A stretch of 64,000 nt of DNA from Colwellia sp. BRX10-3 (GTDB lineage: Bacteria > Pseudomonadota > Gammaproteobacteria > Enterobacterales > Alteromonadaceae). Below the pieces are notes generated by a model, which saw only the letters and a program-made list of their open reading frames with translations, was not told the origin of the DNA and made no database searches. The stretch covers positions 186,001 through 250,000 of the forward strand of contig NZ_JACGWA010000002.1 of assembly GCF_014077505.1 (NCBI RefSeq). Reading direction: 5' to 3'. A program made the position numbers and the translations under genes. Below, in pieces: positions 57,670 through 64,000 of the stretch; the first letter of the stretch is position 1, and each line of letters begins with the position of its first letter.

Positions 57670-59181
57670 ATGACGACCGAAATAGAGCTTAAATATTTAG
57701 TTTTAGGCGATAACACCGTAGACAAAATCACCAAGACATTTAACCGTAAAAACATTCACTTTAGCTATCAGGAAAAGCAACTCGCTAATTGCTATTTTGA
57801 TACGCCAGAGTTGAATTTACGGCAACATGACATGGGGTTGAGAGTTCGCCGCAATAATAATCATATTGAGCAAACGATTAAAACGGCAGGGCAAGTTGTT
57901 GGTGGCTTACATAGTCGTCCTGAATATAATGTTGATATTGATTGTGACTTTCCGATTTTAACGCTTTTTCCAAATAAAATTTGGCAACAAGGGCAATCGG
58001 TAAGTAATATTCAACATGACCTGATAGTTTTGTTCAATACAGATTTTAAACGTTGTACGTGGTTAGTTAACGATGTAGATGGAAATGTGGTTGAATTGGC
58101 TTTTGATCAAGGTACTATTGCCAGTTCAGGCAAAAATAATATCATCCACGAATTAGAATTCGAATTAGTTCAAGGCGATAAATCGGCACTATTTAATTTA
58201 GCATCGTTACTTTTTAAAGACCTAGCACTGCGCCCAGGATTAAAAAGTAAAGCAGCAAGAGGTTATGCGCTCTGGCGAACAGAGCCAATAAAAGAGCGAG
58301 CTGAACAGCAAGTTTTTATTTGTGAAAAAAGTAGTGACTCAATTGCTGATGCCTTTACTTATGGACTTAGTCACGGACTGACCAGCTTGCAGAATAACAT
58401 TGAGCAATATTTAACAACTGAAACTTTGCATGAATTAGTTCAAGTAAAAGACAGTTTAGCGGTTATTCGCCATGGCTTTTGGTTGTTTTCGGAATATTTA
58501 ACGCCGGATGAATTACGTATAAGAGATGAATTGAGTTATTTTGTGCATTTACTCGCTTGGGTTGATAACGCGATACACTTAAAAGAACTCACCAATAAAA
58601 CCGGTAATTATCGTAAAAAACTTGATTTTAGCAAGCAACTAATCAAGCAGCTTAAAATAGAAAAACAACGTTTCCCTAATAGCGACGAAATTTGCCAGCT
58701 TTTACATAGTAGCCGTTTTAATCAGCTGCAACTTTCAATTCTTCAACTCTATTTATCACGTAGTGAAAATAAAGCGATTGAAAATAATATAAACGACCAT
58801 GCGCTTATTGAATTTGCTCAAAATAAAATTCAATTTAGCTTAAGTGAAATTAGTGCAGAGCTAAAGAAAACGACTAATTTAAACTGTCAGCAATATATTG
58901 CACAAAGCAAACTCTTATATCGCAGTTCATTAACCGGCACTTGGCTTGCGGGATTATTCGATAACGACTTACGTGATAAATTTCGCCACCCATGGTTAGA
59001 TTTACAGCAAGGTATAAGCGAGTTAAAGTCACTATGGATTATTCAACTGCAACTAGAAAAACTCTCTGAGCCGCCTCAGAAAATCGTACAGTGGCAACAC
59101 AGTAAAGTGGAAGGCTTGTTATCGGCACTAGATAATACTAAAGCTATCGCAATTGCCATGGAGCCTTACTGGCTTGAGTAA
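57670..59181 (+). CDS. ygiF: CYTH-CHAD inorganic triphosphatase (YgiF-like)
   Basis: 503 residues (433 in E. coli). The CYTH domain (~1-200) begins with the metal-binding EIELKYLVL (ExExK) and contains the substrate-tunnel residues RRNNNHIEQTIKT and RPEYNVDID; the CHAD domain (~215-500) is helical with His-containing helices (LSHGLTSLQ, VIRHGFWLF). YgiF hydrolyses tripolyphosphate; CHAD domains bind polyphosphate. This may matter in a window rich in phosphate-uptake genes, but no Pho box precedes it. The start ATG 57670 lacks a strong RBS. Confidence 0.93.
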   Translation: MTTEIELKYLVLGDNTVDKITKTFNRKNIHFSYQEKQLANCYFDTPELNLRQHDMGLRVRRNNNHIEQTIKTAGQVVGGLHSRPEYNVDIDCDFPILTLFPNKIWQQGQSVSNIQHDLIVLFNTDFKRCTWLVNDVDGNVVELAFDQGTIASSGKNNIIHELEFELVQGDKSALFNLASLLFKDLALRPGLKSKAARGYALWRTEPIKERAEQQVFICEKSSDSIADAFTYGLSHGLTSLQNNIEQYLTTETLHELVQVKDSLAVIRHGFWLFSEYLTPDELRIRDELSYFVHLLAWVDNAIHLKELTNKTGNYRKKLDFSKQLIKQLKIEKQRFPNSDEICQLLHSSRFNQLQLSILQLYLSRSENKAIENNINDHALIEFAQNKIQFSLSEISAELKKTTNLNCQQYIAQSKLLYRSSLTGTWLAGLFDNDLRDKFRHPWLDLQQGISELKSLWIIQLQLEKLSEPPQKIVQWQHSKVEGLLSALDNTKAIAIAMEPYWLE

Positions 59182-59273
59182 CAATAGAGCCAAAACATCG
59201 GATTAAAAATTTTATTATAAAATAATAGGCTACTTAATCATTAGCTTATTATTAATATTATGTAACCAATAGA

Positions 59274-60215
59274 GTGACTATCGTTATTTGTATTAAAAGT
59301 TTTTTCTTAAGCAAACTCATTAATAAGACTTTAATCTGCAGCTTATTACTCTCTAGTTTAATGGCGACAGTAAGTTTTGCGAAAGCATATTCGTTGCCAG
59401 TGGAAGGTTCGCGATTAATTGGTGAGAAACAATATCATGAAGTGGTCAAGGGTGATTACTTTCAACGGATTGCTGAAAAATATGACGTTGGCTTTCTTGC
59501 GCTAATGTCTGCCAACCCAGGTGTTGATCCTTTTTTACCCGCTCTTGGCCAACAACTAATTATTCCAAGTCAGATGTTACTTCCCTTTGGTAAGCGCGAG
59601 GGCATTATTATTAATTTGCCCGAATTACGTTTGTATTATTTCCCCGAAAATAGCGATCAAGTTCATGTTTTCCCTGTTGGTATTGGCAGGCAAGGGTTAG
59701 CAACACCAAAAACAGTGAGCTATATAGGAGAAAAACGAAAAGATCCTGTTTGGCGTCCAACGGTTGAAATGAAACAGCGTTATTTTATTGAGCATGGTAG
59801 GCAATTGGCTGATGAAGTGCCTGCGGGACCCAATAATCCTTTTGGAAAATATGCCTTACGTTTAGGTACAAGTGTTTATTTATTGCATGGTTCAAATCAA
59901 CGATTTGGCATTGGCATGCGAGCAAGCTCAGGCTGTATTCGATTGTATGATGATGATATTAAATGGTTATATCAGCATGTTGAAATTAACACACCGGTAC
60001 GTATTGTTGATCAAACCATAAAACTATCCTATGAGCCAAATAAAAAATTAATAGAGATACATAGCCCACTAACTGGTGATGATGGGGTAGCGAATAAGCC
60101 TGAAGTTACTCATGCTGTAGCCACCTTTGTTGGTAATTCAGTCGATAATAAAAAACTACTATTGCAGCAAGTGGAAAGCCCCAAAGGGTTGGTAACTGAA
60201 CTGCTTATGCAATAA
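59274..60215 (+). CDS. LysM L,D-transpeptidase (YbiS/ErfK-type)
   Basis: 313 residues; signal peptide around residues 18-38 (CSLLLSSLMATVSFA). A LysM module (~54-98, EVVKGDYFQRIAEKYDVGFL...LPALGQQLIIP) precedes the YkuD catalytic domain (~110-245), with His205 in LLHGSN and the catalytic Cys221 in ASSGCIRLYDDD. Enzymes of this architecture (ErfK, YbiS, YcfS, LdtABC) attach Lpp to meso-DAP of peptidoglycan or form 3-3 crosslinks. The Lpp-like gene is immediately downstream in convergent orientation, so Lpp anchoring is the likely role. The GTG start at 59274 has no good RBS; the true start may differ by a few codons. Confidence 0.93.
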   Translation: MTIVICIKSFFLSKLINKTLICSLLLSSLMATVSFAKAYSLPVEGSRLIGEKQYHEVVKGDYFQRIAEKYDVGFLALMSANPGVDPFLPALGQQLIIPSQMLLPFGKREGIIINLPELRLYYFPENSDQVHVFPVGIGRQGLATPKTVSYIGEKRKDPVWRPTVEMKQRYFIEHGRQLADEVPAGPNNPFGKYALRLGTSVYLLHGSNQRFGIGMRASSGCIRLYDDDIKWLYQHVEINTPVRIVDQTIKLSYEPNKKLIEIHSPLTGDDGVANKPEVTHAVATFVGNSVDNKKLLLQQVESPKGLVTELLMQ

Positions 60216-60237
60216 AAAAGTTAGCGGCCTGAATAGC

Positions 60238-60272
60238 AAAAAAGCACATAAACCAAGGTTTAGTGCTTTTTT
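60238..60272. terminator. Bidirectional terminator between ldt and lpp
   Basis: AAAAAAGCACATAAACC / GGTTTAGTGCTTTTTT with one bulged base; A-run on one side, T-run on the other. Confidence 0.85.
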
Positions 60273-60307
60273 AAGTCAGTTATCTTTTTAAACAAACTGC
60301 AGGTGTA

Positions 60308-60568
60308 TTATTTTTTGTAGCTAGCCACTACATTATCAATACGTTCATTTGTGTCTTTAACTGCTTGGTTGGTCAGTTCTTGCGCCATACCTAATTCGTT
60401 TACTTCAGCCGAAATTGCCTTCGTCTGAGAAGACAAACTGTTAACTTTTTCTGTTAAATTATCGACTTTTTGGTTTAATTGAGAAATATTTGCTTCCAAT
60501 GCCGAGTTGTTGGCACAGCCGCTAATAACGGCAACTAAAGCCACTAGAGTTAATTTTTTTAATAGCAT
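60308..60568 (-). CDS. lpp: Major outer-membrane (Braun-type) lipoprotein Lpp
   Basis: 86 residues (78 in E. coli). Lipobox VISGC, lipidated Cys18. The mature part is one heptad coiled coil (ISQLNQKVDNLTEKVNSLSS...) and the C-terminus is ERIDNVVASYKK, the Lpp 'Y(R/K)K' ending whose last lysine is linked to peptidoglycan. The convergent L,D-transpeptidase gene next door could make that bond. RBS AAAGGGAA upstream. A few extra heptads relative to E. coli would slightly widen the outer-membrane spacing. Confidence 0.93.
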   Translation of the reverse strand: MLLKKLTLVALVAVISGCANNSALEANISQLNQKVDNLTEKVNSLSSQTKAISAEVNELGMAQELTNQAVKDTNERIDNVVASYKK

Positions 60569-60815: not shown

Positions 60816-61301
60816 CTATTTATCCGTTTTAGTTAACGAGTCTAACTTCTCTTCTAATTTTATTAGCTTTTTAGTTATTTCTATATTTTGAGTGATGATT
60901 TGTGAATTTTGCATTCTAAGCTCTCGGTTTTTAATGTTTGTATCAGCAAAGCCAAATATTTTATTAACAAATACCGCACCCATACCACCGAGTAGGCCTA
61001 TGCCTAAAATAAACATAATAAAAACAGAGGCTCGACCAACAAAACTTATTGGATAAACATCACCAAAGCCAATAGTAGTGGAAGACATAACCATCAGCCA
61101 AATAGCATCTGCATAGCTTTTAACCGGTGAGGTCTCTAGCCCAATTTCGGCTTGATAGGTAATGTAACCTAATGATAAATTTAAGGTTATAAATAAAAAT
61201 AAAGATATACTGCCAATAAAACCGTAATTATAATTTTTTACCCCAAAGTCATCGACACGGTATAAATTACTTTTTTCCATTACTTTTTGAACGACTATCA
61301 T
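60816..61301 (-). CDS. Two-helix potassium-type ion channel
   Basis: 161 residues. Helix 1 at ~28-48, a pore loop with the selectivity filter TTIGFGDVYP (75-84), helix 2 at ~91-113, then a 40-residue coiled coil (~124-157) ending KLDSLTKTDK. The TxxTxGFGD pattern is diagnostic of K+ channels; a tetramer is expected. It lacks an RCK/KTN domain, so gating would come from the coiled coil or partners. It is the last gene of the PspA-type cluster, 55 nt after the RHH-like gene. Start ATG 61301 with AAGAGA upstream; Met8 is an alternative. Confidence 0.88.
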   Translation of the reverse strand: MIVVQKVMEKSNLYRVDDFGVKNYNYGFIGSISLFLFITLNLSLGYITYQAEIGLETSPVKSYADAIWLMVMSSTTIGFGDVYPISFVGRASVFIMFILGIGLLGGMGAVFVNKIFGFADTNIKNRELRMQNSQIITQNIEITKKLIKLEEKLDSLTKTDK

Positions 61302-61356
61302 TTTAATCTCTTATTGCATTAGCTGCTGGCTACTCATAAACGAGTTAAGCCGAGTT

Positions 61357-61686
61357 TCAGTTGATAAGTGTATCATCAACATAATTGATTAAATCATCCA
61401 TTAATTTTTTTTTAATTTCAAGTTGTTGTTCTGCTGACAAGCTATATTTTTCACCTAGTAATGCGTAGTCTTCAGCAGACAGACTCACCGTTAATCTTGG
61501 GCGTTTAGGGCGCTTATTGGTCGGTAGCCCTAAAATATCTCTAATTTGCTCTGACGGGCTAATGCCTGCTTCTAAGGCTTGTTTTCTAATGGCTAGTTGA
61601 ATTTTTTCATCCATATCAAAAGCAACTTGTACTGCTTTTACTGCTTTGACTGATGATTGCCATTTTTCGGGGATTTTTCGCGACAT
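61357..61686 (-). CDS. Small protein with tandem ribbon-helix-helix-like segments
   Basis: Not a named family to me. 109 residues. Residues ~18-54 read as a ribbon-helix-helix unit: strand AVQVAFDMDEK, helix IQLAIRKQALEAG, turn, helix SPSEQIRDILGL. A basic linker (NKRPKRPR) leads to a second, similar strand-helix-helix (RLTVSLSAEDYALLGEKY, AEQQLEIKKKLMDDL). This suggests a DNA-binding protein in which two RHH units form one fold. The start ATG 61686 lies 2 nt after the upstream stop, with AGGAAG inside that gene's end: translational coupling. Candidate regulator of its own operon. Confidence 0.65.
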   Translation of the reverse strand: MSRKIPEKWQSSVKAVKAVQVAFDMDEKIQLAIRKQALEAGISPSEQIRDILGLPTNKRPKRPRLTVSLSAEDYALLGEKYSLSAEQQLEIKKKLMDDLINYVDDTLIN

Positions 61687-61688
61687 AA

Positions 61689-62327
61689 TTAACTTCCTGG
61701 ATACATATCAACAATATCTGTGGTGGGCCTAAATAAAGTTAAAAACACTTCGGTATCACCGTCTTGCCAAACTTCAATATCAAGTCCTTTGTCTTGTTCT
61801 TCATCAAAAAGTGCATAAAGTTCAAACTGTTCTCCGCTGTCTTTACCTTCATAGGCTGAAAGTGCATCTTTGCGGTAATCTTTACGATGAAAGTATCCAA
61901 CTTCGGCATAGCTGCTCTGTTGGTATAATTCGCTGCTCCAGCCTGATGTAGTATTACTGTCTGCTATGCGTGTTAACTGAGCTTGTCCGGGTTCATCAAA
62001 AACTTCAGCAAATTTTTCTAGATCGAAAAGCGTCTCAACATCTTGATGGAGTATTTTCAGTGAAAATTTTAAAAAGGTTTTATCGTCAACGTCCAAGGTT
62101 AAATATAGCTCTATATTATCATTGCCTTGTAAAACCCATTCAGCTTGGGTTTTATGTTCAAATTCATAGCTATTAACCGCAGTTACTTGAAATTCTTGCG
62201 CTCGCAGTGCTGCAGGCAAACCAAAACTGTCAGACATGACAATAATGTCACCTAAGGTGAGCTCTTTAACATTATCGAGTTTGCGCTCTTGCGTTGGTTT
62301 TTTGAATATATTTTTAAAAAAACTCAC
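61689..62327 (-). CDS. yjfK: DUF2491-like (YjfK-like) protein
   Basis: 212 residues, soluble. The N-terminus MSFFKNIFKKP, LTLGDIIVMSDSFGLPAALRAQ, YEFEHKTQAEWVLQG, FDLEKFAEVFDEPGQAQLTRI and the SYAEVGYFHRKDYRKDAL stretch resemble E. coli YjfK (DUF2491), whose function is unknown. The position in the order YjfI-YjfJ(PspA)-YjfK supports the call. It lies ~95 nt after pspA, beyond a strong terminator, so it may need readthrough or its own promoter. The identification is by eye and by synteny. Confidence 0.75.
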   Translation of the reverse strand: MSFFKNIFKKPTQERKLDNVKELTLGDIIVMSDSFGLPAALRAQEFQVTAVNSYEFEHKTQAEWVLQGNDNIELYLTLDVDDKTFLKFSLKILHQDVETLFDLEKFAEVFDEPGQAQLTRIADSNTTSGWSSELYQQSSYAEVGYFHRKDYRKDALSAYEGKDSGEQFELYALFDEEQDKGLDIEVWQDGDTEVFLTLFRPTTDIVDMYPGS

Positions 62328-62373
62328 TGTCTGCTCCGAATAATAATGGCTAAAAATGGCAATAAATTAAGCT

Positions 62374-62407
62374 AAAAAACCGCTTTGTATCATAGATACA
62401 AAGCGGT
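62374..62407 (-). terminator. Strong terminator between pspA and yjfK
   Basis: Read on the minus strand: ACCGCTTTGTATC, TAT loop, GATACAAAGCGGT (62407-62395 / 62391-62379), then six T (62379-62374). A perfect 13-bp stem. It lies 17 nt after the pspA stop, inside an otherwise codirectional cluster. Confidence 0.9.
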
Positions 62408-62423
62408 AATAGTAATTTTTGAG

Positions 62424-63113
62424 CTATTTTTGTTTAGCTTTTAAGCGCTCTAATACTGAATTTGCATTGTTGTCATTAGCACCAATGCCGGCTTCTTTAA
62501 GCTTAGCTTCTAGTGAGTTATCTGAATTTTCAGACTCAAGTACTTCAGCTGCTTTCATTCGGTCATCAAATTTTTGTTGCTTAGCTTTAATACGCTCTAA
62601 TGAATCTTTAGCGTTTAATAACTTAGAGTTGCTTGATGAGAAGTTATCGGTTATTGCTGACGTCGCTTTTTGTACGCTTTCAGTGGTTTTCACCATAGAC
62701 AATTGACGCTTGTATTCAGCAACATGGCGTTCACTCTTTTTCACTAACTCTTTCAAACGCTCAGCATTACCTTGAAAGCTGTCAAGCGCTTGTTGTTGAG
62801 TAGTTAATTCATTTTCAAGCGTGGAAATTTTTTCTGCAACAGCCATGGCAAGTTCATCATCACCTTTTTCAAGGGCTTGAACGGCATAGCCTTCATGTTC
62901 AACAACTTCACGTTTAATACGCTCAACGTCACGACTAGAAGACATTTGCTGTGCCATAACACCGGTTAAATCACGTTTAGCTTTGGTAAGGTGGTTTTCT
63001 GCGTCACGAATTTCTTGTTCAAAAATGCGCGTAGCATTTGAGTCAATAATTGATTCACCCACTTCACTTGCACCGCCGCGAATTGCGGTCATAATTTTTT
63101 TAAAAATACTCAT
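62424..63113 (-). CDS. yjfJ: PspA/IM30 family membrane-stress protein (YjfJ-like)
   Basis: 229 residues, predicted to be almost wholly coiled coil (PspA 222). The N-terminal amphipathic helix (MSIFKKIMTAIRGGASEVGE) binds membranes, as in PspA and Vipp1. Helices 2-3 (IRDAENHLTKAKRDLTGVMA, LENELTTQQQALDSFQG) form the hairpin of the ESCRT-III-like fold. The last ~25 residues are a Asn/Asp-rich tail with a helix LERLKAKQK. PspA proteins stabilise leaky inner membranes and assemble into rings or rods. It follows the DUF2170 gene by ~23 nt. No pspB, pspC or pspF is near. Confidence 0.9.
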   Translation of the reverse strand: MSIFKKIMTAIRGGASEVGESIIDSNATRIFEQEIRDAENHLTKAKRDLTGVMAQQMSSSRDVERIKREVVEHEGYAVQALEKGDDELAMAVAEKISTLENELTTQQQALDSFQGNAERLKELVKKSERHVAEYKRQLSMVKTTESVQKATSAITDNFSSSNSKLLNAKDSLERIKAKQQKFDDRMKAAEVLESENSDNSLEAKLKEAGIGANDNNANSVLERLKAKQK

Positions 63114-63136
63114 AATAATACTCCTAAGGTGGCTGC

Positions 63137-63550
63137 TTAAATTAAGTAATCACTCATGTCGTCAATAATTTCTAGCGCATTGTTACTTAATACGGCTAGT
63201 TCGTGTTCGATATCATCAAATGTTGAGCTAATAGCTAGCGCACCAAAAATGACATATTTATCACCAATTTTTGAAAATGAAGATAATGGCATAGGTATGT
63301 TCATCTCTAGCATACTGACATGCATCTCATTCATTTTACTTGATTTAACTTCTTCTTCACCCCAGAGGTAGGTGATACAAAGAATTTGATCATCAGTTAC
63401 CGAAACAAAAATTGGTAACTCTTCACGGCCAAATACCGTTATTTGTAGTACATCAACTTCACCTGAAATAGGTTGGCAATCAAAAACCATCCCGGTGTCT
63501 GAATTGTCGGCCAAAGTATTCAGGTAGTCAGCTATCTTATGAATATTCAT
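63137..63550 (-). CDS. yjfI: DUF2170 (YjfI-like) protein
   Basis: 137 residues from ATG 63550, chosen because GAGGAA lies 6 nt upstream; the in-frame ATG at 63562 overlaps that RBS. Acidic, soluble protein (IADYLNTLADNSDTGMVFDC, VLQITVFGREELPIFVSVTDDQIL, LEMNIPMPLSSFSKIGDKYVIFGALA, then an acidic helix). It resembles E. coli YjfI (DUF2170), the gene upstream of the PspA-like yjfJ, and has the same place here. Function unknown. It is the first gene after the paired palindromes. The family name is from memory and not checked. Confidence 0.75.
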   Translation of the reverse strand: MNIHKIADYLNTLADNSDTGMVFDCQPISGEVDVLQITVFGREELPIFVSVTDDQILCITYLWGEEEVKSSKMNEMHVSMLEMNIPMPLSSFSKIGDKYVIFGALAISSTFDDIEHELAVLSNNALEIIDDMSDYLI

Positions 63551-63608
63551 GTAATTCCTCATGCTCTAATAAGTAGCGTAAAAATCAGTGATACTGTTTT
63601 TACTTAAC

Positions 63609-63657
63609 GACATATTATGTCGTATTGGGTTAATTTAGCATTGTGACATATTATGTC
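63609..63657. promoter_or_regulatory. Paired palindromic operators and promoter of the YjfI-PspA cluster
   Basis: Two identical palindromes GACATATTATGTC occur at 63609-63621 and 63645-63657 (arms GACATA/TATGTC around one base; longer arms CGACATA/TATGTCG and TGACATA/TATGTCA), 36 bp start to start. On the minus strand TTGACA (63659-63654) of the upstream palindrome, a 16-nt spacer and TAAATT form a sigma-70 promoter. One palindrome thus overlaps the -35 region and the other lies just past the start point: a repressor arrangement. No sigma-54 motif, so no PspF-type control. Confidence 0.8.
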
Positions 63658-63704
63658 AAGTGCTAATTCATTTTATTTCTTAATTTATCTTAATTTAATT
63701 ATTA

Positions 63705-64000
63705 TCATTGTAAATGGGCATTATTTAATCCTTGCTGATCTTGCCATGCTTGCTGATGTAGCTGGTAAATGGCATGGCTACCAAGATAATTAATCGGTAC
63801 CGCTTCGCTATCTAGATAAAAATCGCGAGAAAATTCAAAGGCATTCATCACCATAGGTAAGGTTAACCAATGGTGTGAAACTGGCAGTTCTGGTAAGTTG
63901 TTAAGTCTCGTTAAAGGACCTGCGCCCATTTTACTCGCAATAGTCCAGCCCCATTCGCCAAAACTAGGTACGTTGTCATGATATTGCTGAACGGTTGAAT
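63705..64000 (-). CDS. Polyamine aminopropyltransferase-like protein, C-terminal part
   Basis: The minus-strand frame is open to the window edge, so only the last ~98 residues are seen; the internal ATG at 63929 is not the start. The segment reads TVQQYHDNVPSFGEWGWTIA, then NAFEFSRDFYLDSEAVPINYLGSHAIYQLHQQAW. This resembles the end of spermidine-synthase-like (SpeE) proteins, where a 'Y.D.VPSFG.WGF.LA' motif is followed by a 'VN.L....L...Y...W' helix. Family call by eye. Such genes are linked to PspA in several bacteria. It ends ~155 nt before the yjfI-like start, across the operator pair. Confidence 0.65.
   Translation of the reverse strand, partial: STVQQYHDNVPSFGEWGWTIASKMGAGPLTRLNNLPELPVSHHWLTLPMVMNAFEFSRDFYLDSEAVPINYLGSHAIYQLHQQAWQDQQGLNNAHLQ

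What the first reader, a model, noticed from the sequence alone, without database searches (positions are those of the whole stretch)
60816..64000. PspA-centred envelope-stress cluster with a K+ channel, an RHH-like protein and a polyamine enzyme
Seen: five codirectional genes (DUF2170-like, PspA, DUF2491-like, RHH-like, TTIGFGD channel) plus the end of an aminopropyltransferase-like gene. Known: PspA homologues in yjfI-yjfJ-yjfK operons, and PspA genes near polyamine and ATP-grasp genes, have been described, but pspF/B/C partners are absent here. Inferred: a membrane-integrity system that couples PspA repair with K+ flow and polyamine levels, with its own regulator rather than PspF. The channel at the end of the operon in place of YjfL-M-C looks like a variant.
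Basis: partly seen in the sequence, partly recalled or inferred. Interest (0 to 1): 0.68.

Follow-up and report, generated by a model that had tools for sequence, protein, structure and literature searches.

The report
Predicted repressor of membrane-stress genes
A known cluster of bacterial membrane-repair genes carries a small DNA-binding protein that probably switches off this cluster and several other membrane-protection genes through one shared 13-letter DNA sign, which gives the system a regulator that can be tested in the laboratory.

Summary
The five genes are there, but the "DUF2491-like" gene is DUF4178-like. Read past the window end, the operon is lipoprotein–DUF350–membrane spermidine synthase–DUF2170–PspA–DUF4178–RHH–K+ channel: the second CesT/Tir–PspA operon class of Ravi et al. 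2024, whose RHH gene is also described. The operon itself is not new.

What I did not find in print (10 searches) is its control. The 109-aa protein models as a tandem ribbon-helix-helix. A palindrome, GACATAWTATGTC, lies twice before the DUF2170 gene (63609-63621, 63645-63657): one copy overlaps the TTGACA of the best promoter-like site of the region, the other follows the expected start point, a repressor-like layout kept in 77 of 80 relatives. It tracks the RHH gene: 53 of 64 RHH+ genomes of the order have it, 9 of 133 without. This genome has six copies (reversed control none) at five promoters: DUF2170, lipoprotein–DUF350–spermidine synthase, another pspA–pspC, NfeD–SPFH–SPFH and NhaA; elsewhere also HtpX.

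Best reading: an RHH repressor of an inner-membrane and ion-homeostasis regulon, separate from PspF. Signal and channel role are inferred; no binding was measured. Exceptions (family f11; stand-alone synthase loci) are reported.

The parts
63705..64000 (-). 3' end of the membrane spermidine-synthase-like gene; whole gene is L004:3706-5418 (570 aa), with DUF350 (L004:5511-6413) and a lipoprotein-like gene (L004:6422-7450) before it
   Evidence: NF002956 589.6 bits, cut-off 472; PF01564 and PF03994 over cut-off
63645..63657 (.). operator O1, GACATATTATGTC, overlapping the -35 hexamer of the DUF2170 promoter
   Evidence: O1 completes TTGACA in 77 of 77 relatives that have both sites
63632..63659 (-). 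promoter-like site TTGACA-16-TAAATT with TG before the second hexamer (10 of 12 matches)
   Evidence: best of 12 in the region; the number of such sites is at chance, mean 12.6 in shuffles
63609..63621 (.). operator O2, GACATATTATGTC, 36 bp from O1, just after the expected transcription start
63137..63562 (-). DUF2170 (CesT/Tir-like, YjfI/BacA relative), 141 aa
   Evidence: PF09938 5e-36; NF050185 BacA 1.1e-12, below cut-off
62424..63113 (-). PspA/IM30, 229 aa
   Evidence: PF04012 4.4e-40
62379..62407 (-). intrinsic-terminator-like hairpin behind pspA, a likely attenuator
   Evidence: similar by a simple scan in 42 of 79 relatives
61689..62327 (-). DUF4178-like beta-rich protein, 212 aa
   Evidence: PF13785 1.4e-4, 22.5 bits, cut-off 25; model pLDDT 88.2
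61357..61686 (-). tandem ribbon-helix-helix protein, 109 aa, predicted repressor
   Evidence: AlphaFold2 model with two beta-alpha-alpha units; structural rows; co-occurrence with the palindrome
60816..61301 (-). two-TM K+ channel, 161 aa, filter TTIGFGD
   Evidence: PF07885 36.5 bits, cut-off 22.5; nearest solved Lmo2059 and KcsA

Best explanation
The operon is the published CesT/Tir(DUF2170)-PspA-spermidine-synthase class. Its 109-aa protein is a tandem ribbon-helix-helix repressor that binds the palindrome GACATAWTATGTC. Without stress it sits on O1 (over the -35 hexamer and spacer) and O2 (just after the expected start point) and shuts off DUF2170-PspA-DUF4178-RHH-channel, thereby also limiting itself. 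From other sites it controls the lipoprotein-DUF350-spermidine-synthase genes and, elsewhere in this genome, a second pspA-pspC operon, NfeD-SPFH-SPFH and the Na+/H+ antiporter NhaA (HtpX in several other families). Inner-membrane damage lifts repression, and the regulon supplies membrane coating and repair (PspA), membrane scaffolds (SPFH/NfeD), proteolysis (HtpX in some) and ion control (K+ channel, NhaA). Shown by computation: the genes, the tandem-RHH model, the palindromes, their promoter layout, their co-occurrence with the RHH gene, the target genes. Inferred: DNA binding, repression rather than activation, the inducing signal (perhaps relayed by DUF2170, PspA or DUF4178), and the tasks of channel and aminopropyltransferase.
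For: Palindrome in 53 of 64 RHH+ and 9 of 133 RHH- genomes of the order, 245 against 13 copies; outside, in 358 class genomes, 6 of 10 RHH+ against 4 of 348, in five of the six 1.25-2.0 kb upstream of RHH. Of 16 genomes with a DUF2170 match but no RHH match, 14 have none. Own family: 6 of 6 RHH+, 0 of 8 RHH-; six of those eight keep NhaA. Both sites exact in 77 of 80 relatives, O1 always completing TTGACA. 68 of 76 sites lie -20 to +250 from an ORF start, 25% of random positions do. Targets are coherent: 37 of 70 fetched loci are HtpX, NfeD-SPFH, NhaA, PspA or SPFH (hand count; names). Tandem-RHH model with single-chain Arc and AvtR among the top rows.
Against: No binding or expression data. 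11 of 12 RHH+ genomes of family f11 lack an exact copy; the one f11 locus read has two copies with 2 mismatches each. The three RHH- genomes with more than one site or no clear excuse aside, 9 RHH- genomes have a copy (G111, 4 copies, is a fragmented assembly with the operon start at a contig end; G083 has 2; seven have 1). Four stand-alone spermidine-synthase loci of f2, f11 and f12 have no site up to 2 mismatches. In 22 upstream stretches first read, 9 had it exactly, 2 with 1-2 mismatches, 11 not; six or seven of the 11 belong to RHH operons (L098, L100, L101, L102, L107, L109, L111), some through a misplaced start. 33 of 70 fetched loci are a mixed lot. Outside the order the paired sites are 15-46 bp apart, not 36. 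Model confidence is middling (pLDDT 76.6, pTM 0.62), Foldseek alone gave nothing firm, and RHH profiles stay below cut-off. Tests are not corrected for shared ancestry.
Confidence: 0.74

Rival explanations
1. The palindrome belongs to another regulator that occurs in the same genomes, and the RHH protein regulates something else or acts through protein contact.
For: No binding data; RHH protein has an acidic residue (D24) on the exposed face of its first strand, unusual for DNA contact (inference); family f11 keeps RHH but has only degenerate sites.
Against: The paired sites stand before the operon that encodes RHH in 77 of 80 relatives and in other orders; DUF2170 genomes without RHH lack it (14 of 16).
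Confidence: 0.15
2. RHH binds the palindrome but activates, or only sets the level of its own operon, and the other sites are of little weight.
For: In several families (e.g. f2) the genome holds only the two operon sites or one more; 33 of 70 other loci are a mixed lot.
Against: O1 lies between and over promoter elements and O2 after the start point, where an activator would block RNA polymerase (inference); NfeD-SPFH, NhaA, PspA and HtpX recur across families.
Confidence: 0.2
3. The K+ channel gene is a passenger behind the operon and not part of the response.
For: Only 39 of 80 close relatives carry it there; in G194, G006 and G160 a homologue lies on another contig than the RHH gene, with no site up to 2 mismatches in the two 10-kb loci scanned (G194, G006).
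Against: The slot behind RHH holds channels of different build: two-TM (f1, f16), Ion_trans type of about 265 aa (f6, f15, f12), two-TM with RCK (class loci); DUF4178-RHH-channel stand together in G023, DUF350-channel in G030.
Confidence: 0.25

Closest known systems
CesT/Tir-PspA operon, second major group of Ravi et al. 2024 (PMC11237479, passages of section 19)
   Same: DUF2170-PspA pair, 7TM spermidine synthase, DUF350, lipoprotein, DUF4178, sometimes a final RHH gene
   Different: The passages seen name no operator, no regulon and no K+ channel for this group
Third CesT/Tir-PspA group (ATP-grasp, K+ channel, DUF350, DUF1190, DUF2491; PMC11237479)
   Same: DUF2170-PspA with a K+ channel and a DUF350 protein
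   Different: Here spermidine synthase instead of ATP-grasp, DUF4178-like instead of DUF2491
bac operon of Pseudomonas aeruginosa (PMC10948618, abstract and passages)
   Same: Begins with DUF2170 (BacA) and a PspA homologue (BacB); negative control of the operon by BacA is proposed there
   Different: Authors propose sigma-54 and report no spermidine synthase; here a sigma-70-like promoter with RHH operators
pspA-ydjGHI of Bacillus subtilis (PMC8581546, abstract and passages)
   Same: PspA works with an SPFH protein (YdjI), and a Rho-independent terminator follows pspA; here SPFH/NfeD genes carry the same palindrome and a terminator-like hairpin follows pspA
   Different: SPFH genes are at a separate locus here; different regulator
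Tandem or single-chain RHH proteins: single-chain Arc (1u9p), AvtR (4hv0), an F-plasmid relaxosome chain (TraY, identity recalled)
   Same: Two RHH units in one chain; best structural rows for the model (Z 6.6, 5.9, 6.8)
   Different: No sequence relationship found; different genes and operator

Membership tests
CesT/Tir-PspA operon, second group (Ravi 2024) | DUF2170 gene next to pspA | tested here: met
   PF09938 and PF04012 over cut-off, adjacent
CesT/Tir-PspA operon, second group (Ravi 2024) | Spermidine synthase domain with N-terminal membrane part | tested here: met
   PF01564 at residues 305-499 of 570 and NF002956 over cut-off; hydrophobic N-terminal part seen in the sequence
CesT/Tir-PspA operon, second group (Ravi 2024) | DUF350 membrane protein | tested here: met
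   PF03994, 125 bits, two stretches
CesT/Tir-PspA operon, second group (Ravi 2024) | DUF4178 protein | tested here: inconclusive
   22.5 bits against a cut-off of 25; right size and place
CesT/Tir-PspA operon, second group (Ravi 2024) | Lipoprotein with Ctha_1186 domain | tested here: inconclusive
   342-aa protein with a lipobox-like LLLSAC in the sequence; no Pfam or NCBIfam family over cut-off
yjfIJK-type operon with DUF2491 | DUF2491 gene | tested here: not met
   No DUF2491 match among Pfam families up to E 0.1
Canonical Psp operon | pspB, pspC and pspF beside pspA | tested here: not met
   Not at this locus; they are beside another pspA on C50
Ribbon-helix-helix transcription factor | beta-alpha-alpha fold | tested here: met
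   Two units in the model, E19-22 H27-40 H44-52 and E66-69 H71-80 H88-107; RHH proteins lead the structural rows. Middling confidence
Ribbon-helix-helix transcription factor | Curated RHH profile over its cut-off | tested here: not met
   NikA-like 13.9 bits, cut-off 27; a relative has RHH_1 at 17.7, cut-off 20.5. The families' curators had no profile for this branch; the fold row is the stronger test
Ribbon-helix-helix transcription factor | DNA binding at the operator | not testable with these tools
   Only co-occurrence and promoter layout
K+ channel (PF07885) | Pore profile and filter sequence | tested here: met
   36.5 bits, cut-off 22.5; TTIGFGD
K+ channel (PF07885) | K+ conduction | not testable with these tools
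   needs electrophysiology or flux assay

The most novel reading that the evidence does not exclude
An inner-membrane stress response not described so far and distinct in control from Psp/PspF, Cpx, Rcs and sigma-E: a single-chain tandem-RHH repressor with a 13-bp operator co-ordinates PspA-type coating, SPFH/NfeD scaffolds, membrane proteolysis and K+/Na+/H+ flux in many gammaproteobacterial families, with DUF2170 or PspA as the likely link between membrane state and repressor.
Probability: 0.6. Interest if true: 0.82.

Novelty: new variant of a known kind. Interest (0 to 1): 0.72.

Why it matters
DUF2170-PspA operons are known from gene neighbourhoods and from biofilm work in P. aeruginosa, but how they are switched on is open. 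A named repressor gene, an exact operator and a target list make this directly testable. They also place orphan genes (DUF350, DUF4178, the membrane spermidine synthase, the small K+ channel) in one response with PspA, SPFH/NfeD, NhaA and HtpX, and suggest how one genome can keep three PspA paralogues under different control: one beside pspF, two under the RHH palindrome.

Tried and rejected
DUF2491 identity: not borne out. Sigma-54 control: strict pattern in 0 of 22 upstream stretches, 0 of 80 DUF2170 upstream stretches and not in our own; three loose matches were not pursued. Fold of DUF4178: confident model (pLDDT 88.2), but no Foldseek match below E 0.04 and best VIA-align Z 3.6 (thiamine triphosphatase), so no function is drawn. 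RHH by PDB sequence: one irrelevant row at E 0.39. RHH by Foldseek alone: nothing below E 0.7. Spermidine-synthase branch as a constant member of the regulon: not upheld in f2, f11 and f12 (4 loci). Own HtpX as a target: no site up to 2 mismatches in its 3-kb stretch. Own sites with one mismatch (6 listed) were read but not counted, because at up to 2 mismatches the reversed control is nearly as frequent (73 against 93).

Literature: ten searches; none listed a paper on this operator or regulon. The motif search gave one plant paper, listing only. PMC3223726 (Shewanella regulons) was searched for six terms, none found; PMC9239133 passages were seen. The library holds open-licence papers only, so absence there is not proof.
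Full report
What is there. The window's last 3.2 kb hold five minus-strand genes and the end of a sixth. The window is bases 186001-250000 of contig C53, so I read on. In order of transcription: a lipoprotein-like gene (342 aa), DUF350 (300 aa), a membrane spermidine-synthase-like gene (570 aa), DUF2170 (141 aa), PspA (229 aa), a DUF4178-like gene (212 aa), a 109-aa gene and a 161-aa K+ channel; glnE is divergent upstream (glnE named by reading the sequence). The genome has two more pspA genes: one with pspB, pspC and a divergent pspF on C50, and one with a pspC-domain gene on C28.

Known part. Ravi et al. 2024 (PMC11237479; passages of section 19 seen) describe this as the second group of CesT/Tir-PspA operons, with the 7TM spermidine synthase, DUF350, lipoprotein, DUF4178 and sometimes an RHH gene. 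The K+ channel is named there for the third group. The P. aeruginosa bac operon begins with the same pair; its authors propose negative control by BacA (DUF2170) and a sigma-54 promoter (PMC10948618, abstract and passages). So the operon is not new.

How constant the parts are. In 197 genomes of the order, matches were found for the spermidine synthase in 56, the RHH protein in 64, DUF2170 in 80 and the channel in 92 (thresholds 1e-20, 1e-3, 1e-3, 1e-5). All 64 RHH+ genomes have a DUF2170 match. The RHH proteins of 15 other genomes align over nearly the whole length at 63-79% identity to ours. In 80 named loci, the best of 287 relatives (mostly Colwellia and Thalassotalea, one Shewanella), RHH, DUF2170, PspA and DUF350 are in 80, lipoprotein and DUF4178 in 79, spermidine synthase in 76, a channel in 39 (the loci were chosen by RHH, and some are cut by contig ends).

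The channel. By hand count a channel lies within 3 kb of RHH in 27 of 64 RHH+ genomes: f16 8 of 8, f15 5 of 5, f6 10 of 12, f1 3 of 6, f12 1 of 4 (one gene between), none of the other 29 at that threshold; in one of these, G023, a more distant 365-aa channel follows RHH. The slot holds channels of different build: two-TM (window type), about 265 aa with the Ion_trans domain (L098, L099, L105, L106), and 349-378 aa with a pore and an RCK domain (L309, L314, L315, L318; L102 without an RCK match). In G023 DUF4178-RHH-channel form a block away from DUF2170-PspA; in G030 glnE is followed by DUF350 and a channel without the rest. This argues for a working part, though not an obligatory one.

The palindrome. 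I saw GACATAWTATGTC by eye in 22 upstream stretches. A recount gives 9 with an exact copy, 2 with one or two mismatches (L108 of f25, L110 of f11) and 11 without. Of the 11, four are contrasts (own canonical pspA, the ORF start of the third pspA, the lone channel of G160, RHH-less G030); the other seven belong to the RHH operon or its parts (L098, L100, L101, L102, L107, L109, L111), and at least in L098 a site lies further upstream than the stretch read. The third pspA also has a site, before a 116-aa ORF upstream of it. In a search of the same 197 genomes 62 have an exact copy: with RHH 53 of 64, without 9 of 133; 245 against 13 copies; Fisher 1.7e-27. The reversed pattern as control was found in two of the 197 listed genomes. 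Exceptions: the 11 RHH+ genomes without an exact copy are all of f11; the RHH- genomes with one are G019, G063, G080, G083 (2 copies), G086, G102, G111 (4 copies, a fragmented f16 genome whose sites lie before its DUF2170 gene), G145 and G188. Of 16 genomes with a DUF2170 match but no RHH match, 14 have none. In the window's own family 6 of 6 RHH+ have it and 0 of 8 RHH-. In the class sample of 360 (358 without G000 and G006; two of the 358 are of the own order), 10 RHH+ and 10 palindrome+ genomes share 6; Fisher 1.5e-8. In five of the six the sites lie 1.25-2.0 kb upstream of RHH on the same contig; in G374 they lie on another contig; where paired, they are 15-46 bp apart. These tests are not corrected for shared ancestry, and the order set contains the genomes in which I first saw the palindrome.

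Promoter layout. In the window the sites are 63645-63657 (O1) and 63609-63621 (O2), 36 bp apart. The best promoter-like site of the region, TTGACA-16-TAAATT with TG before the second hexamer, has its first hexamer overlapping O1; the number of promoter-like sites is at chance, so the argument rests on conservation. In 77 of 80 relatives both sites are exact, spaced 34-39 (36 in 48, 35 in 23); in 77 of 77 O1 completes TTGACA, and a -10-like hexamer stands at spacer 16 with 2 mismatches in 75 and 3 in 2. O1 is thus centred between the two hexamers, and O2 begins a few bases after the expected start point, a repressor layout (inference). A site also precedes the lipoprotein gene in 73 of 80 loci, never with the preceding TT (0 of 73); the called start of our lipoprotein gene overlaps it, but the true start may lie downstream. 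In f11 the one locus read keeps the layout with two mismatches in each copy.

The regulon. In this genome the six exact sites fall at five promoters: the DUF2170 operon (two sites), lipoprotein-DUF350-spermidine synthase, a 116-aa ORF with pspA-pspC on C28, NfeD-SPFH-SPFH on C28 and NhaA on C50. I read 70 loci with sites away from the main operon from 21 RHH+ genomes (three of them own; a part of all sites) and 4 loci from RHH- genomes. In the 70, 68 of 76 sites lie -20 to +250 from a called ORF start, against 25% of random positions. By hand count, 37 of 70 have HtpX (10: f6, f12, f25, f15, f16, f23), NfeD-SPFH-SPFH (10: f1, f6, f12), NhaA (7: f1, f16, f23), PspA (6: f1, f23) or SPFH alone (4: f1, f15, f16) next to the site; representatives were named by profiles, the rest by BLAST clusters. 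The other 33 are mixed: two unknown proteins in a row, M16 and M17 peptidases, AIM24, an esterase, a voltage-gated-type channel, HlyD and others. Of the 8 RHH- genomes of the family, 6 keep NhaA and none has the palindrome. An SPFH protein brings PspA to the membrane in B. subtilis (PMC8581546, abstract and passages), which fits.

The regulator. AlphaFold2 on 42 sequences gives a helix (7-16) and then beta-alpha-alpha twice (pLDDT 76.6, pTM 0.62). Foldseek finds nothing firm, but the second look ranks F-plasmid relaxosome chains (TraY, recalled), single-chain Arc and AvtR first (Z 6.8, 6.6, 5.9), with CopG, NikA and FitA among the lower rows (3.4, 2.9, 2.6). The second strand, R64-L-T-V-S-L69, is invariant in both alignments and resembles the DNA-contacting strand of CopG (recalled). 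A single-chain pseudo-dimer reading one GACATA half-site, two chains per palindrome, would fit the 13 bp (inference).

Mechanism and limits. The best model is a repressor of an inner-membrane and ion-homeostasis regulon, relieved by an unknown signal. DUF2170, PspA and DUF4178 are candidate relays because they share the operon with RHH. A terminator-like hairpin behind pspA (62379-62407; similar in 42 of 79 relatives) would keep RHH and channel below PspA. Binding, direction and signal have not been tested.

Noticed in passing
window 62379-62407: Intrinsic-terminator-like hairpin between pspA and the DUF4178-like gene, found by a simple scan in 42 of 79 relatives; may set PspA above RHH and channel.
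   Followed up: partly
L336:1590 and L339:1546 (own genome, C29 and C43): Palindromes with one mismatch stand just before a pgsA-like gene and about 125 bp before a yccA-like FtsH-modulator gene; suggestive membrane targets, but not above background in number.
   Followed up: partly
L108:4300-5760 (G025, family f25): Between DUF2170 and RHH there is no PspA match by phmmer; the sequence there encodes another, coiled-coil-looking protein.
   Followed up: no
L103 and L104 (G122, G017): DUF2170-PspA-RHH continue into other large genes; in L103 one is a DUF3686 ATPase, as in another published PspA operon class, so this RHH type is not bound to the spermidine-synthase class.
   Followed up: partly
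L113 (G030): glnE is followed by DUF350 and a two-TM channel alone, without DUF2170, PspA, RHH or palindrome.
   Followed up: partly
L151:3-2444, L162, L169, L178: A pair of about 210-aa and 560-aa proteins with no Pfam match at 1e-5 (L151 tested) lies behind the palindrome in f1, f15, f16 and f23.
   Followed up: no
window 57670-60568: Neighbours: a CYTH-domain protein, an LdtE-like L,D-transpeptidase and an Lpp/OprI-like lipoprotein; the last two recur near the operon in 46 and 49 of 80 relatives.
   Followed up: no
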